Shown here one piece after another: positions 56,333 to 64,000 of a stretch of DNA of 64,000 bases. Positions within the stretch are counted from its first letter, which is position 1, and each line of letters opens with the position of its first letter. The stretch comes from Thermoleophilaceae bacterium (lineage in GTDB: Bacteria; Actinomycetota; Thermoleophilia; Solirubrobacterales; Thermoleophilaceae): contig JBBDYQ010000012.1 of assembly GCA_040901445.1 (NCBI GenBank), forward strand, positions 77,234-141,233. Direction: 5' to 3'. The position numbers and the translations under genes are program-made. Below the pieces are notes generated by a model that was given only the letters and a program-made list of their open reading frames with translations, had not been told where the DNA came from and searched no databases.

Positions 56333-57370
56333 ATGAGCAACCGCACCCTCAGCGACGGCACGCGCCTCGGCGAGCAGCTTCGCCGCGAGCGCCTGCTCGA
56401 CATGGAAGAACGGCTGCGCCCCTACCGGCGGCGGGCATTCGCGGTGCTCGCGATCGCGCTGCTCGCCGGCGTCCCGTGGGTGGGCTGGTGGTGGTTCATC
56501 CCGCTCGCGTTCGCGGCGATCGCCTTCCCCGTCAGCGACCGGCTGATGAGCCGCAGCCCCAGGCCCGAGCGCTGGGCGGCGGGCGGCTGGGCGTTCGCCT
56601 GCCTGATGATCGCGGTGAGCGTGGCCCTCACCGGTGGGCCCGACAGCCCGGCGGTGGCCTGGTTCGCGCTGCCGGCCGTGACCCTCGGGGCGCGCTTCGA
56701 GCGCAAGGGCGTGATCCTGGGGCTGAGCTGGCTCGTCCTGCTGGTGGCGGGCTCCACGATTCCGATGGACCCGGCCTACGCGGCCGATGCCCCGCAGTTC
56801 ATCTTCTTCGCCATGGCGCTCACCATCGCGGTCACGCTCCTCAGCGGCGCGGTCATCCAGTCCGACCGCGAGCATCGCCGCGGGGCGGTCATCGACCCGC
56901 TCACCGGCCTCTTCAACCGCGCGGCGCTCGCCCAGCGCTTCGCCGAGCTCGAGCACCAGGCGCGCCAGACCCCCGACACCGCGACGGTCGGCTTCCTCGT
57001 GGGCGACCTCGACCACTTCAAGAAGATCAACGACGAGCACGGCCATGTCGTCGGCGACGCCGTGCTGCAGAACGCCGCCTACGCCATGCGCAATGCGTTG
57101 CGCGCGTTCGACCTCGTGTACCGGATCGGGGGCGAGGAGTTCGTGGTGGTGCTGCCCGGGGCCAGCATGAACAAGTCGCATGAGATCGGCGAGCGCCTGC
57201 GCCAGGCCGTCGCCGGGAGCGCGCCCCGCGGCATCCCCGTCTCGATCAGCTTCGGAGTGGCCAGCGGCACCCCGGGCGATCTCGGCTTCGGCACGCTCTA
57301 CGAGCGCGCCGACCGCGCCCTGTACGACGCCAAGGAGAACGGCCGGAACCAGGTGGTCGTGGCCGGTTAG
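56333..57370 (+). CDS. Membrane diguanylate cyclase (GGDEF)
   Basis: A 345-residue protein from ATG 56333. The first half has about five or six membrane helices (AVLAIALLAGVPWVGWWWFI, FIFFAMALTIAVTLLSGAVI). The GGDEF domain starts at IDPLTGLFNRAALAQRFAEL, with GDLDHFKKINDEHGHVVGDA and the active motif GGEEF in YRIGGEEFVVVLPG. No inhibitory RxxD is obvious five residues upstream. It makes cyclic di-GMP. The next gene begins 13 nt on. Confidence 0.93.
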   Translation: MSNRTLSDGTRLGEQLRRERLLDMEERLRPYRRRAFAVLAIALLAGVPWVGWWWFIPLAFAAIAFPVSDRLMSRSPRPERWAAGGWAFACLMIAVSVALTGGPDSPAVAWFALPAVTLGARFERKGVILGLSWLVLLVAGSTIPMDPAYAADAPQFIFFAMALTIAVTLLSGAVIQSDREHRRGAVIDPLTGLFNRAALAQRFAELEHQARQTPDTATVGFLVGDLDHFKKINDEHGHVVGDAVLQNAAYAMRNALRAFDLVYRIGGEEFVVVLPGASMNKSHEIGERLRQAVAGSAPRGIPVSISFGVASGTPGDLGFGTLYERADRALYDAKENGRNQVVVAG

Positions 57371-57383
57371 GCTTGCCGGCGCG

Positions 57384-58217
57384 ATGCGCCTGGTGACCTA
57401 CGACGTGGGGGCAGGGCCCCGCGCCGGTGCGCTGGACGGCGACGTGGTCCGCGACGTGTGGGGCATCGATGCCCCGGTGCCGCCTGGCGAGCGCTGCGTC
57501 AGTTCGCTCGTGCGCGGCGGGCTGCTCGGCCAGATCGCCCCCACCGGTCCCGAGCTCGCGCTCGCCGACGTCGCCCTGCTCCCGCCGATCCGCAATCCGG
57601 GCAAGATCGTCTGCATCGGCCTCAACTACCGCTCACACGCGGAGGAGGCCGGGCTGGAGCCGCCCGAGACCCCCACCTTCTTCGCCAAGTTCACAAACGC
57701 GCTGGCCGCCCCGGGCGCCGAGGTGCGCCTTCCCGCCTACAGCCAGAAGGTGGACTTCGAGGCCGAGGTCGCGTTCGTGGTGGGTGCGCGCTGCAAGGAC
57801 GTTCCCGAGGAGGAGGCGCTCGCCCGCGTGGCGGGCTACATGCTCTTCAACGACCTCTCCGCCCGCGACTACCAGTTCAAGACCAACCAGTGGATGCCCG
57901 GGAAGGTGTTCGACGGCTCGGCCCCCTGCGGCCCGGCGCTCGTCACCCCGGACGAGGCGGGCGACCCGATCGAGATGGCGCTCACGCTCAACGGAGAGCA
58001 GATGCAGTCCGCCGCCACGGACGACCTCATCCACTCCGTGCCCGCGCTGCTGTCCTACCTGTCCACGCTGATGACGCTGGAGCCGGGCGACGTGGTTGCC
58101 ACGGGCACGCCCTCCGGGGTGGGCGGGGCGCGAACGCCCAGCGTGTGGCTGAAGCCGGGGGACGAGCTGGTGGTCTCCTCGCCCACGCTCGGGGAGCTGC
58201 GCACGGTGCTCGCGTGA
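57384..58217 (+). CDS. Fumarylacetoacetate hydrolase family protein
   Basis: A 277-residue FAH-fold enzyme: KIVCIGLNYRSHAEEAGLEP, TFFAKFTNALAAPGAEVRLP, the metal ligands in VDFEAEVAFVVGARCKDV, NDLSARDYQFKTNQWMPGKV and MTLEPGDVVATGTPSGVGG. Such enzymes cleave beta-diketones, decarboxylate oxaloacetate or hydrolyse acylpyruvates. The stop overlaps the hydratase-like start (GTGA). It is second in the unit leading to the selenoprotein gene. Confidence 0.92.
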   Translation: MRLVTYDVGAGPRAGALDGDVVRDVWGIDAPVPPGERCVSSLVRGGLLGQIAPTGPELALADVALLPPIRNPGKIVCIGLNYRSHAEEAGLEPPETPTFFAKFTNALAAPGAEVRLPAYSQKVDFEAEVAFVVGARCKDVPEEEALARVAGYMLFNDLSARDYQFKTNQWMPGKVFDGSAPCGPALVTPDEAGDPIEMALTLNGEQMQSAATDDLIHSVPALLSYLSTLMTLEPGDVVATGTPSGVGGARTPSVWLKPGDELVVSSPTLGELRTVLA

Positions 58218-58882
58218 CCCTCGACGAGCGCGTGGCGCGCGGATTGGCGGCGCAGGCTGTACTCCGGCGCGAGCTGATCGAGGGCGGTGCGCGACCGGTG
58301 GGCTGGAAGATCGGCTTCAACATCGCCGCGGTGCAGCAGCGGCTCGGGATCGCCGCGCCGGTCATCGGCTTTCTCACGAGCGCCGGGCTGCTCGAGCCGG
58401 GCGCGAGCCATCGCGCCGGCGGGATCGCCGAGTGCGAGGTCGCGATCCACGTGGGCGCGGACGTGGCGCCGGGCGCGACGCGCGACGAGGCGGCCGCCGC
58501 GATCGCGGCGCTCGGCCCGGCGATCGAGGTCACCGACCGCCCCGACCTCGAGCTCGGCCTCGAGGCGATCCTCGCCGGGAACGTGTTCCACCGGGCGGTG
58601 GCATTCGGCGAGCCGGCGGCCGGCGCCGCGCTCGACGGCGTCGCGGCGCGAGTGCTCGTGAACGGGGAGGAGCGGGGCGCGGCGGACGCGCTGGCGGCCA
58701 CGGGGGATCCGGCCGCGGTGGTGGCGCACGTGGCGGAGCTGGCCGGAGCCGCAGGCGAGCGGCTGCGGGCCGGCGAGCGCATCATCGCCGGCGCGATGCC
58801 GCCGCTGGTCCTGCCCGAGCCCGGTGACCGTGTGGAGCTCGACCTCGGCCCGCTGGGTCGCGTGGCTCTGGCGTTCGCTTAG
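58214..58882 (+). CDS. 2-keto-4-pentenoate hydratase-like protein
   Basis: A 222-residue protein from GTG 58214 with the MhpD/FAH-related fold: GGARPVGWKIGFNIAAVQQR, APVIGFLTSAGLL, AECEVAIHVGADVAPGA, IEVTDRPDLELGLEAILAGN and IIAGAMPPLVLPEPGDRVEL. These enzymes add water to 2-hydroxypenta-2,4-dienoates or decarboxylate 4-oxalocrotonate. With the preceding FAH gene it suggests a meta-cleavage-like catabolic step, but no ring-cleavage dioxygenase is seen. Confidence 0.85.
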   Translation: MTLDERVARGLAAQAVLRRELIEGGARPVGWKIGFNIAAVQQRLGIAAPVIGFLTSAGLLEPGASHRAGGIAECEVAIHVGADVAPGATRDEAAAAIAALGPAIEVTDRPDLELGLEAILAGNVFHRAVAFGEPAAGAALDGVAARVLVNGEERGAADALAATGDPAAVVAHVAELAGAAGERLRAGERIIAGAMPPLVLPEPGDRVELDLGPLGRVALAFA

Positions 58883-58892: not shown

Positions 58893-60374
58893 ATGGGACT
58901 CGAGCTCGTCGCGCTGGTCAAGCACGACTGTCCGGTGTGCGACCAGCTGCTGCCCGTGCTCGACGACGCCGCCGCAGACGGCGCGCCGCTGCGGATCCTG
59001 TCCCAGTCGGACGAGGGCGACACCGCCGGGCAGGCGGCCCGCCTCGGCCTGCGCGCCGTGCCCGAGCTCGACGACGACCTCGAGCTCTCGTTGCGCTTCG
59101 ACCCCGACGCCGTGCCCACGGTGGTGCTGCTCGACGCGGGGCGCGAGGACGGTCGCGTGGAGGGCCTCGACCGCGGCCGCCTGGGCGAGCTCGCCGGCCG
59201 CGCCGGCGTGACGCTCGCGCTCGACGGGCTTCCCGAGCGCCGGCCGGGCTGCGCCAGCGCCACCCGCGACCCGCAGGTGGCCGCCTCCCTCGCGGCCCGC
59301 GCGGCAAGGCGCGAGGGGCGGATCCGCTCCCGCGCCGTCCCGATCGGCGAGCTCGAGGACCCGTTCGATGCGCTGTGGGAGCGCGGGGTCACCGACGGGC
59401 TGCCGGTGGTGCCGCCCACACCCGAGCGGGTGGTCGCGATGCTCGAGCACACAGGACGCGACCCTCAGGAGGTGGTGGGCGTGGTGCCGCCCTACGACGG
59501 CGAGGCCACGGTGGAGAAGGTGGCGGTGAACGCCGTGATGGCGGGCTGCCCGTGCGAGGCCCTGCCGGTCGTGCTCGCCGCGGTGGAGGCGGCCTGCGCG
59601 CCGGAGTTCGCGCTGCACGGCCTGGTCGCGACGACCTATCCGGCGGGTCCCACGGTCGTCGTGAGCGGGCCCTTTGCAGCGGAGATCGGCATGAACGCGG
59701 GTGGCAACTGCCTGGGACAGGGCAACCGCGCCAACCTCACGATCGGACGGGCGCTCCAGCTGGTGGTGCGCAACCTCGGCGGCGGCAGGCCGGGGGAGGA
59801 GGACCGCGCCGCGCACGGGCAGATGGGCAAGCTCGGCTCGTGCTTCGCGGAGGCGGAGGACGGCGCCCCGTGGGAGGGGCTCGCGCATGCGCGCGGCGTG
59901 CCGGCCGGCGAGACCGGCGTCACGCTCATGGCCACCGAGGCGCCGCGGGCGATCGTGGACCAGCTGGCGCGCGAGCCCGAGGGGCTGTGCGCAAGCCTTG
60001 CGCTGGCCCTCGACTCCGTGGCCACGCCCAAACAGCGGCTGGCGTTCGACGCGATGGTGCTGGTGGGCCCCGAGCACGGGCGCGTGTTCCGCGAGGCGGG
60101 CTGGGACCGCGAGCGGGTGCAGGAGCGCCTGCACGAGCTCACCCACCGCCGCGCGGGCGACGTCGTGCGCGGGGCGTTCGGGTCCCCGGAGGGCGTGGAT
60201 CCGCAGTTCGTCTCCGATCCCGAGATGCAGGTGGCGAAGTTCGCGGCGGCGGACCGCATCCTGCTGGCCCACGCGGGCGGCGACGCCGGGCTGTTCAGCA
60301 TGGTGTTCGGGGGCTGGGCGTCCGGCGAGATCGGCTCCGCGCCGGTCACGCGCAGTGTGGAGCCGTGGAGATGA
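58893..60374 (+). CDS. Two-domain partner of the UGSC selenoprotein: thioredoxin-like (CPVC) plus unknown C-terminal domain
   Basis: A 493-residue protein. Residues 1 to about 115 are thioredoxin-like with C13-PV-C16 in ELVALVKHDCPVCDQLLPVL. The long C-terminal part starts at DPFDALWERGVTDGLPVVPP and has NAVMAGCPCEALPVVLAAVE, TTYPAGPTVVVSGPFAAEIG, MNAGGNCLGQGNRANLTIGR and HGQMGKLGSCFAEAEDGAPW. The extra cysteines are in AGCPCE, GGNCLG and GSCFA. I do not know a reaction for this domain. Its stop overlaps the selenoprotein start by 4 nt (ATGA), so the two are made together and probably act together in a redox step. Confidence 0.75.
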   Translation: MGLELVALVKHDCPVCDQLLPVLDDAAADGAPLRILSQSDEGDTAGQAARLGLRAVPELDDDLELSLRFDPDAVPTVVLLDAGREDGRVEGLDRGRLGELAGRAGVTLALDGLPERRPGCASATRDPQVAASLAARAARREGRIRSRAVPIGELEDPFDALWERGVTDGLPVVPPTPERVVAMLEHTGRDPQEVVGVVPPYDGEATVEKVAVNAVMAGCPCEALPVVLAAVEAACAPEFALHGLVATTYPAGPTVVVSGPFAAEIGMNAGGNCLGQGNRANLTIGRALQLVVRNLGGGRPGEEDRAAHGQMGKLGSCFAEAEDGAPWEGLAHARGVPAGETGVTLMATEAPRAIVDQLAREPEGLCASLALALDSVATPKQRLAFDAMVLVGPEHGRVFREAGWDRERVQERLHELTHRRAGDVVRGAFGSPEGVDPQFVSDPEMQVAKFAAADRILLAHAGGDAGLFSMVFGGWASGEIGSAPVTRSVEPWR

Positions 60375-60898
60375 GCGGCACCGAGATTCTCGACCCCACC
60401 CCCGAGCGCGAGCCCGCCGGACGTCCGCTGGCGGACCCGCTGCCCGCCGGCGAGGGTGCGCGAATCGCGCTGCTCGACATCCGCAAGCCGCGCGGCGACG
60501 TGTTCCTCGACGAGCTCGAGCGCCTGCTCTCCGAGCGCGGGCACCGCATCGAGCGCACGATGAAGCCGACGTTCACCAAGCCCGCGCCGTCCGACGTGCG
60601 CCGCGAGATAGCCGAGCGCTGCGACGCCGTGATCGAGGCGCTGGCCGACTGAGGCTCCTGCGTGTCGTGCGGTCTGCGCGACGTGCTCGAATTCGAGAAG
60701 GAGGGCAGGCCGGCGGTGCTCGTGGCCTCGAGCGCGTTCGTCGACGCTGCCGACAAGCAGGCGGCGATGCTCGGTCAGCCGCAGGCACGCCGCGTGTTCG
60801 TGCCGCACCCGATCCAGGACCGCACGGACGACGAGCTGCGCGAGCTGGCCCGGTCGGTGGCCGGCCGGCTCACGGCCGCGCTCGAGCGACCACGCTGA
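60371..60898 (+). CDS. UGSC-family selenoprotein (in-frame UGA = selenocysteine)
   Basis: Read through TGA 60650-60652 this is a 175-residue protein with selenocysteine at position 94. Before it: EILDPTPEREPAGRPLADPL, IALLDIRKPRGDVFLDELER, TFTKPAPSDVRREIAERCDA and VIEALAD. Then U-G-S-C-V-S-C-G, and after it LRDVLEFEKEGRPAVLVASS, AFVDAADKQAAMLGQPQARR and VFVPHPIQDRTDDELRELAR. Both halves are in one frame and read as one continuous domain. The UGSC motif names a selenoprotein family known from selenoproteome surveys. A bacterial-type SECIS hairpin follows the UGA. C97 and C100 are likely redox partners. It is coupled to the CPVC protein gene. Confidence 0.9.
60660..60686 (+). promoter_or_regulatory. 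Bacterial SECIS-type hairpin
   Basis: An 11-bp stem (GCGTGTCGTGC with GCGCGACGTGC, three G-U pairs) closes the loop GGTCT at 60671-60675. The loop begins exactly 18 nt after the TGA. As recalled, E. coli fdhF has the same GGUCU apical sequence at the same distance. It lies inside the coding region, as in other bacteria. Confidence 0.8.
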
Positions 60899-62521: not shown

Positions 62522-62530
62522 CAGTCGGTG

Positions 62531-64000
62531 ATGACGTCGGTTCGACGGAATCGCCCACGGCCGCGGTTTCACCGCGACGTCAAGCCCTTCTTGGCGCTAC
62601 TACCTCTCGTGGCCGCGACGATGGCCTTCGCACAACAGCCCTCGGGCACCACCTTCGCCGGCACTCCTCGCGATGACGATGTGACCGGCACGGCGTCTTC
62701 GGACGTGCTCGCCGGCGGGTTGGGCGCGGACCGTCTCAGCGGACTCGCCGGCGACGACACGCTCTCCGGCGGAAGCGGAGGCGACGAACTCTTCGGCGGA
62801 TCGAACGTCGACATCATGACCGGCGGACCGGGCGATGATCTCCTTGACGGGGGCGGGGACCGCGACTTCCTCGGTGGCGATGCGGGAGATGATCGCTTGT
62901 ACGGCGGCGCCGGCAGTGCCGTCATAGACGGCGGCGCCGGAAACGATTCGATCCGCACGTGGGTTCGCAACGACTCGCTCAACGGCGGCGCCGGCGACGA
63001 CCGCATCCGTGCGAGTTCGGGGGACGACGGCCTCACCGGCGCTTCCGGGCGGGATCAGATCTCAGGGGAGGATGGCGATGATCGTATTGACGGAGGCCTG
63101 GGGCAGGATCGCCTCTCAGGGGGGCCGGGGGATGACAACATCGTCTCGATTGACGGGCAGCCAGACAGCGTCCGCTGCGGGCGCGGCCGCGACGTCGTGC
63201 GCGCGGATGGCGGGGACACGATCGCCGATGATTGTGAGCGCGTAATCAGGCGGCCTGGGACGTTTGACAAGGAACCGGATGCCGACCCGCGTCGGCCCTA
63301 CGAGATTCCAGACGTAGGGGAGGGCGGTGCGCGCGCGATGGCCGATCCGACGGCCAGCGAGTGCGCGCCCGTTTCGCCGACCAGCGGGCCACGCGGCGAT
63401 TCGGTCTCAGGCACGGCCGGCAACGACACGATCGATTCGACGTTGGGATCGGACTGCCTGTTCGGCCTCGCAGGCAACGACCTCCTGTCCGGTGGTCCCG
63501 GCATCGACCGTCTGGAGGGCGGCGACGGTCTGGACTCCCTCTCAGGAGGGGAGGGTGACGACATCGTGCTTGGTGGAGATGAGCGCGACCTGATCGAAGG
63601 TGGTCCCGGCGACGACGATCTTCGTGGGGAGCGGGGCTCCGACATCATCAACGGCGCCTTCGGCAATGACCTCATCATCGGGGGCGAGGCGGGCGATTCC
63701 CTCAATGGCGGCGCCGACGAGGACACGATCCTCGGCGGCGAGGGTGACGACGGGATCACCGGCGCTTCGGGCAACGACACCATCGATGGCGGCCCGGGCG
63801 ACGACCGCATCGAGGGAGGCCTCGGCAAGGATCAGATACAGGGCGGCGACGGCAGGGACAGCATCGTCGCGGCCGACGGCATCCGAGACGAGATCGCCTG
63901 TGGCGGCGGCTACGACACGGTACGCGCCGATGGCGGCGATCGCGTAGCCCGCGACTGCGAGCTGGTGATCGCACGCCGTGGCGGAGCGTACGTCGTGGTT
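62531..64000 (+). CDS. Secreted RTX-type calcium-binding repeat protein (partial, runs off the right edge)
   Basis: 490 codons with no stop. A basic N-terminus and signal (FLALLPLVAATMAFAQ) lead into GTPRDDDVTGTASSDVLAGG. Many GGxGxD nonapeptides follow, e.g. LAGDDTLSGGSGGDELFGG and GGPGDDLLDGGGDRDFLGGD. There are two repeat blocks, about 62650-63240 and 63390-63970, each closed by the same module (RDVVRADGGDTIADDCERVI and YDTVRADGGDRVARDCELVI). The repeats should fold into calcium-bound beta rolls outside the cell. No enzymatic domain is visible in this part. Confidence 0.88.
   Translation, partial: MTSVRRNRPRPRFHRDVKPFLALLPLVAATMAFAQQPSGTTFAGTPRDDDVTGTASSDVLAGGLGADRLSGLAGDDTLSGGSGGDELFGGSNVDIMTGGPGDDLLDGGGDRDFLGGDAGDDRLYGGAGSAVIDGGAGNDSIRTWVRNDSLNGGAGDDRIRASSGDDGLTGASGRDQISGEDGDDRIDGGLGQDRLSGGPGDDNIVSIDGQPDSVRCGRGRDVVRADGGDTIADDCERVIRRPGTFDKEPDADPRRPYEIPDVGEGGARAMADPTASECAPVSPTSGPRGDSVSGTAGNDTIDSTLGSDCLFGLAGNDLLSGGPGIDRLEGGDGLDSLSGGEGDDIVLGGDERDLIEGGPGDDDLRGERGSDIINGAFGNDLIIGGEAGDSLNGGADEDTILGGEGDDGITGASGNDTIDGGPGDDRIEGGLGKDQIQGGDGRDSIVAADGIRDEIACGGGYDTVRADGGDRVARDCELVIARRGGAYVVV

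What the first reader, a model, noticed from the sequence alone, without database searches (positions are those of the whole stretch)
60371..60898. An overlooked selenoprotein: UGA in a UGSC motif with a matching SECIS hairpin
The gene would be called as a 93-residue protein plus a downstream fragment, but both sides of TGA 60650-60652 are one frame and one domain. The residues around it are U-G-S-C-V-S-C, the motif of the UGSC selenoprotein family. An 11-bp stem with the loop GGUCU starts so that the loop lies 18 nt after the UGA, the same loop and distance as recalled for E. coli fdhF. Three independent signs agree. It implies that this actinobacterium makes selenocysteine.
Basis: partly seen in the sequence, partly recalled or inferred. 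Interest (0 to 1): 0.92.

Follow-up and report, generated by a model that had tools for sequence, protein, structure and literature searches.

The report
UGSC selenoprotein gene with redox partner
The gene really does appear to read an internal "stop" codon as the rare amino acid selenocysteine and belongs to the already known UGSC selenoprotein family; new here is that it almost always travels with an uncatalogued partner gene, which in one bacterial family appears to be a selenoprotein too.

Summary
Confirmed, and the selenoprotein reading is well supported. TGA 60650-60652 sits inside one UGSC-family frame (PF24696, NF041046, both above cut-off). An 11-bp stem with a GGUCU loop lies 18 nt after the UGA. 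The genome encodes tRNA-Sec(UCA), SelA, adjacent SelB, SelD, and a second Sec gene, a formate dehydrogenase with the same spacing and nearly the same loop. Of 112 homologous genes compared, 106 have UGA here and keep the hairpin; 6 have Cys and lack it. UGA forms go with selA (30/31 genomes, against 2/7 without UGA). UGSC selenoproteins have been published since at least 2008, so this is a new member of a known family. The hairpin is not independent of the coding sequence: 6-8% of synonymous recodings do as well.

Beyond the finding: the gene overlaps (ATGA) an upstream 493-aa gene with a thioredoxin-like domain and an unclassified core. It co-occurs with UGSC almost perfectly (36/36 UGSC genomes; one genome has the partner alone). 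In all 17 genomes examined of one family of Acidimicrobiales-type actinobacteria, the partner's otherwise invariant Cys is itself an in-frame UGA followed by a hairpin. I found no catalogue entry for that selenoprotein. Function is inferred as redox; substrate unknown.

The parts
60371..60898 (+). UGSC-family selenoprotein gene, 174 sense codons plus Sec-UGA and stop (175 aa product)
   Evidence: NF041046 145.3 bits (cut-off 125), PF24696 149 bits (cut-off 25) on the read-through protein
60650..60652 (+). in-frame UGA, predicted selenocysteine 94 (motif U-G-S-C-V-S-C)
   Evidence: 106 homologues have TGA and 6 have TGC/TGT at this codon; genome has tRNA-Sec, SelA, SelB, SelD
60660..60686 (+). 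bacterial SECIS hairpin, 11 bp with loop GGUCU (loop 60671-60675), 18 nt after the UGA
   Evidence: fits published bSECIS geometry (PMC13188914)
58893..60374 (+). partner gene, 493 aa: thioredoxin-like N-domain (C13-P-V-C16), linker Cys120 (RPGC), core with invariant Cys219; its stop overlaps the UGSC start codon (ATGA 60371-60374)
   Evidence: upstream of UGSC in 65 of 68 loci with enough flank; co-occurs in 36 of 36 UGSC genomes
57369..58217 (+). fumarylacetoacetate-hydrolase family gene upstream; probably not part of the module (start codon not established)
   Evidence: PF01557; no relative found near the UGSC gene in the other loci searched
58217..58882 (+). second FAH/2-keto-4-pentenoate hydratase-like gene, 10 nt before the partner gene; probably not part of the module (start codon not established)
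   Evidence: PF01557, TIGR03218/TIGR03220 below cut-off; not conserved at other loci

Best explanation
The gene encodes a UGSC-family selenoprotein. Ribosomes decode UGA 60650-60652 as selenocysteine because SelB with Sec-tRNA(Sec) is recruited by the hairpin that follows (inferred from conserved sequence; the machinery genes are shown to be present). The product is predicted to be a single alpha/beta (Rossmann/flavodoxin-like) domain with Sec94 at the start of a helix just after a strand, a usual site for a catalytic residue, with Cys97 and Cys100 nearby. It most likely works with the protein of the overlapping upstream gene as a two-component thiol/selenol oxidoreductase: the partner's core (invariant Cys219) binds or presents the substrate, Sec94 is the nucleophile that is oxidised or bonds to the substrate, and the partner's thioredoxin-like domain (C13-P-V-C16) with linker Cys120 returns it to the reduced state. 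Shown: family membership, machinery, hairpin conservation, gene coupling and co-inheritance, invariant Cys/Sec residues. Inferred: Sec incorporation itself, the redox role, the relay order. Substrate unknown.
For: Family match above curated cut-offs. tRNA-Sec with anticodon TCA, SelA, SelB on the same strand next to SelA, SelD. 106 UGA homologues keep 5-7 of 7 stem pairs, six Cys homologues have 1-4; paired changes at third codon positions on both sides: C-G to G-C in 2 genes, G-C to A-U in 3 and to C-G in 1. UGA-form genomes 30/31 with selA against 2/7 of genomes without UGA (Fisher p 2e-4). A second Sec gene in the same genome, formate dehydrogenase (NF041513, 1435.9 bits, cut-off 1400), has 18-nt spacing and loop AGUCU. 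Codons on both sides of the UGA change about equally often without altering the amino acid in close relatives. Predicted fold pLDDT 87. Partner. Partner's Cys120 equivalent is an in-frame UGA in 17 genomes, which points to Cys120 being a redox residue.
Against: No experiment. The hairpin is reached by 6-8% of synonymous recodings. One UGA-form genome (G136) shows no selA, perhaps a gap in a 94%-complete draft assembly. Cys forms of the partner often pair 6-7 of 8 at the partner's hairpin site, so that hairpin is weaker evidence than the UGA itself. Which residue contacts which is a guess.
Confidence: 0.93

Rival explanations
1. The UGA is a real stop and the downstream half is a decaying remnant (pseudogene).
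For: By the standard code the frame ends there; most actinobacterial genomes lack the family (36 of 396 have it).
Against: 106 homologues in different lineages carry UGA at the same codon and continue; the second half changes mainly at silent sites, like the first half; all Sec machinery is present.
Confidence: 0.02
2. UGA is read through as another residue (Trp or Cys by near-cognate tRNA) rather than as Sec.
For: Near-cognate read-through of UGA is common in general (own knowledge); Cys homologues exist.
Against: Dedicated tRNA-Sec, SelA, SelB and SelD; hairpin present in UGA forms and missing in Cys forms; UGA forms track selA.
Confidence: 0.03
3. The UGSC protein is a remote relative of the selenoprotein B family of glycine/proline reductases (GrdB/PrdB) and forms a selenoether with its substrate, rather than acting as a simple dithiol-type redox protein.
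For: Profile comparison aligns 55 columns around U-G-x-x-x-x-C-G ... LE..G.P, P 0.0008 but probability only 24%; Sec follows a strand in both; the partner gene could stand in for a substrate-binding subunit.
Against: No Pfam match to PF07355 even at E 10; the own genome has no GrdB.
Confidence: 0.15

Closest known systems
UGSC-containing selenoprotein family (PF24696, NF041046; Zhang and Gladyshev 2008, PMC2398784)
   Same: Full-length match, UGSC motif, bSECIS, Sec/Cys homologue pairs
   Different: This copy is in a Solirubrobacterales-like actinobacterium and has loop GGUCU where most relatives have AGUGU; predicted alpha/beta Rossmann-like fold instead of the thioredoxin-like fold suggested in 2008
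UGSC/'Unknown_1' fusion reported in the GOS selenoproteome (PMC2398784)
   Same: UGSC protein joined to a second conserved Cys-containing domain
   Different: Here the second protein is a separate, overlapping gene; whether it is Unknown_1 could not be checked because the supplementary alignment is not held
Actinobacterial selenocysteine formate dehydrogenase (NF041513)
   Same: Second Sec gene in this genome; UGA-to-loop spacing 18 nt and loop AGUCU
   Different: Unrelated protein, different stem sequence
GrdB/PrdB (PF07355)
   Same: Short local similarity around U-G-x-x-x-x-C-G
   Different: No family-level match; no pyruvoyl or GrdB N-domain

Membership tests
UGSC family (PF24696 / NF041046) | Score above curated cut-off over the whole domain | tested here: met
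   149 bits (cut-off 25) and 145.3 bits (cut-off 125)
UGSC family (PF24696 / NF041046) | U/C-G-S-C motif at the Sec position | tested here: met
   U94-G-S-C97; D93, U94, G95, S96, C97 invariant in 31 aligned members
Bacterial selenoprotein | In-frame UGA aligned with Cys in homologues | tested here: met
   106 TGA and 6 TGC/TGT homologues
Bacterial selenoprotein | bSECIS: loop 3-9 nt with G in first two positions, stem 4-16 bp, spacing 16-37 nt (PMC13188914) | tested here: met
   5-nt loop GGUCU, 11 bp, 18 nt
Bacterial selenoprotein | bSECIS free-energy threshold of bSECISearch | not tested
   Program not available here
Bacterial selenoprotein | Genome encodes SelA, SelB, SelD and tRNA-Sec | tested here: met
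Bacterial selenoprotein | Selenium present in the protein | not testable with these tools
   Needs 75Se labelling or mass spectrometry
Thioredoxin fold (suggested for UGSC in 2008) | Thioredoxin fold with active-site motif | tested here: inconclusive
   Model (pLDDT 87) shows five strands alternating with helices; best structural matches are Rossmann-like proteins with Z up to 11.3; no thioredoxin among the rows shown
GrdB/PrdB (PF07355) | Pfam match | tested here: not met
   No match at E up to 10; weak profile match only
Thioredoxin superfamily (partner N-domain) | Thioredoxin fold with CxxC | tested here: met
   Residues 1-105, CPVC; Z 10.9, rmsd 2.4 over 104 residues to M. tuberculosis DsbF

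The most novel reading that the evidence does not exclude
UGSC and its overlapping partner form an undescribed two-component selenoenzyme, and the partner is a new selenoprotein family: in all 17 genomes examined of one family of Acidimicrobiales-type actinobacteria (four genera), the partner's otherwise invariant Cys (window Cys120) is an in-frame UGA followed by a hairpin, so both subunits of the complex carry selenocysteine.
Probability: 0.75. Interest if true: 0.6.

Novelty: new member of a known kind. Interest (0 to 1): 0.5.

Why it matters
The gene itself confirms that a Solirubrobacterales-type actinobacterium uses selenocysteine in at least two proteins, and that standard annotation would truncate this one. 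The larger value is for the UGSC family, widespread but without known function: a nearly obligate partner with a thioredoxin-like domain gives the first concrete candidate for its redox partner, and a second Sec site in that partner marks the residue likely to exchange electrons. That makes the function of a family that has been a hypothetical since at least 2008 testable with one co-expression experiment.

Tried and rejected
Neighbourhood as a clue to substrate: the two FAH-type genes upstream and the membrane gene downstream are not found near UGSC in the other loci. Flanking genes elsewhere include flavin reductases (6 of 48 genes scanned), acyl-CoA dehydrogenases (3) and MaoC-type genes (2), too scattered to name a pathway. 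Partner-UGSC gene fusion in L046 and L080, suggested by one script, was not upheld: the frames differ or a stop intervenes. Sequence search of solved structures with the UGSC profile: nothing. Homology to GrdB/PrdB: weak, kept only as a rival. Rfam: no match in the region (no conclusion drawn about bacterial SECIS elements).

Full report
THE OBSERVATION. The frame from ATG 60371 to TGA 60896-60898 is interrupted only by TGA 60650-60652. By the standard code it falls into a 93-residue protein and a downstream piece. Read through, it matches the UGSC family over nearly the whole model: NF041046, 145.3 bits against a cut-off of 125, and PF24696, E 1.9e-43. The hairpin is as described: 11 contiguous pairs, three of them G-U, loop GGUCU at 60671-60675, 18 nt from the UGA. 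It fits the published bacterial SECIS geometry (PMC13188914).

IS IT MORE THAN CHANCE? The hairpin alone is not. Resampling synonymous codons for the same peptide gave an 11-pair stem at that place in 295 of 5000 cases and an equal or lower energy in 158 of 2000. Comparison across genes is decisive. Among 112 homologous genes (106 UGA, 6 TGC or TGT), the UGA genes keep 5-7 of the 7 loop-proximal pairs (92 of them all 7), with loops of the form RGUNU (AGUGU 91, GGUCU 7, AGUUU 4, AGUCU 4). The six Cys genes have 1-4 pairs and other loops. Paired changes occur at third codon positions on both sides: C-G to G-C in 2 genes, and G-C to A-U in 3 and to C-G in 1.

SELENOCYSTEINE MACHINERY. The window's own assembly (3.54 Mb, 25 contigs) has one tRNA-Sec with anticodon TCA (68.7 bits; confirmed by ARAGORN), SelA (473.9 bits, C15:181203-182459), SelB next to it on the same strand (306.6 bits) and SelD (379.8 bits). 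Across genomes carrying UGSC, 30 of 31 with a UGA form have selA (one of them a partial gene on a contig) against 2 of 7 without a UGA form (Fisher p 2e-4). The exception, G136, is a draft at 94% completeness.

A SECOND SELENOPROTEIN IN THE SAME GENOME. A formate dehydrogenase alpha gene on contig C10 has an in-frame TGA in the motif QARI-U-HSSTVPSLGTSFGRG and scores 1435.9 bits against NF041513 (cut-off 1400). Its hairpin, GGUCCCG-AGUCU-CGGGACC, has the loop 18 nt after the UGA, the same spacing and nearly the same loop as the UGSC gene on an unrelated stem. This supports one shared SelB specificity.

WHAT THE PROTEIN LOOKS LIKE. An alignment of 31 members shows invariant U94-G-S-C97, C100, and the blocks KPTF, HP-QDR-D and LDP. 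The AlphaFold2 model (mean pLDDT 87.4) has five strands alternating with helices; Sec94 lies between strand 86-92 and helix 95-110. The best structural matches are diverse Rossmann-like and receiver-like proteins, Z up to 11.3 at 12% identity. This suggests a Rossmann-like fold, in contrast to the 'likely Trx-like fold' suggested in 2008 (PMC2398784). A short similarity to the C-terminal end of GrdB-type selenoproteins (55 columns, probability 24%) is only a lead.

THE PARTNER. The UGSC start codon overlaps the stop of the gene before it (ATGA, 60371-60374), so the two are probably translationally coupled. The partner protein (58893-60374, 493 aa) has a thioredoxin-like N-domain with C13-P-V-C16, an invariant linker Cys120, and a core with invariant Cys219 that matches no Pfam or NCBIfam family. 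It lies upstream of UGSC in 65 of 68 loci with enough flank. In 396 genomes of the phylum, 36 have UGSC above cut-off, 37 have the partner, and 36 have both (p 2e-50; the genomes are related, so this p overstates independence). In distant members, including those with Cys-type UGSC, the partner lacks the thioredoxin domain but keeps Cys219 (13 of 13). No other neighbour is conserved to this degree.

THE PARTNER IS ITSELF A SELENOPROTEIN IN ONE FAMILY. In a search of 397 genomes of the order around one such genome, the partner carried exactly one internal TGA in 17 genomes of a single family, four genera. In all 17 the TGA is precisely at the Cys120 position (FKPG-U-GSL or FRPG-U-GSL), in a frame that uses 8-10 TGG codons for Trp, has no other internal TGA and ends with TGA; UGSC in the same genomes also has UGA. 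In 112 partner genes examined elsewhere the codon is Cys except for this lineage and one ambiguous base. A hairpin follows 20 nt after the UGA (GUCGACCC-CGGGC-GGGUCGAC, G in the second loop position), pairing 7-8 of 8 in all 17, with one paired change C-G to U-A. Caution: Cys partners often reach 6-7 of 8 pairs there as well, so the conserved UGA carries the argument. The selenium reading is supported by selA in G453. NCBIfam, which holds models for many catalogued Sec families, gave no match to this protein even at loose thresholds. The 2026 review's passages read here do not describe it, and a paper search for selenoproteins in Acidimicrobiia found nothing relevant. It appears uncatalogued, but the review's table was read only in part.

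HOW IT PROBABLY WORKS. UGSC with its partner is best read as a two-component selenol/thiol redox enzyme: substrate at the partner core and Sec94, re-reduction by the partner's thioredoxin-like domain through Cys120. Shown: membership, machinery, conservation, coupling, and Sec replacing Cys at Cys120. Inferred: chemistry, order of the relay, substrate.

NOVELTY. UGSC selenoproteins are a known and abundant family (255 sequences in the 2008 marine survey; counted in 26 organisms in 2016, PMC5029168). This copy is a new member of a known kind. The co-inherited partner and its Sec form are the parts worth following.

Noticed in passing
L179-L195 (17 genomes: G453, G547, G511, G575, G732, G746, G600, G665, G683, G762, G809, G623, G646, G700, G717, G777, G793); also L067 and L132: The UGSC partner gene has an in-frame TGA at its otherwise invariant Cys, with a hairpin 20 nt downstream: an apparently uncatalogued selenoprotein, so that both genes of the module encode Sec.
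   Followed up: yes
L146, minus strand, nt 1921-1923 (own genome, contig C10): Second selenoprotein of the window's genome: formate dehydrogenase alpha with U in QARI-U-HSSTV, NF041513 above cut-off, loop AGUCU 18 nt after the UGA.
   Followed up: yes
58893-60374: Partner core domain (about residues 140-493) has no Pfam or NCBIfam family and its fold was not tested on its own.
   Followed up: partly
L135-L144: GrdB-type genes in other actinobacteria of the sample end at a TGA and continue in frame as U-G-T-G-T-R-(C/S)-G, i.e. the usual second motif Cys is Gly.
   Followed up: no
G136 (L110): UGA-form UGSC and partner but no selA found at 94% completeness: assembly gap or loss of the Sec machinery.
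   Followed up: no
G268, contig C272: Four partner-core matches without a UGSC gene, the only such genome among 396.
   Followed up: no
62528-64000: Open frame with many GGxGxD-type repeats (RTX-like calcium-binding repeats) running off the window end.
   Followed up: no
L036, L039, L047, L057, L094: Public MAG titles name Ferrithrix or Bifidobacterium breve, although the UGSC genes are close to those of Acidimicrobiia MAGs; the labels look unreliable.
   Followed up: no
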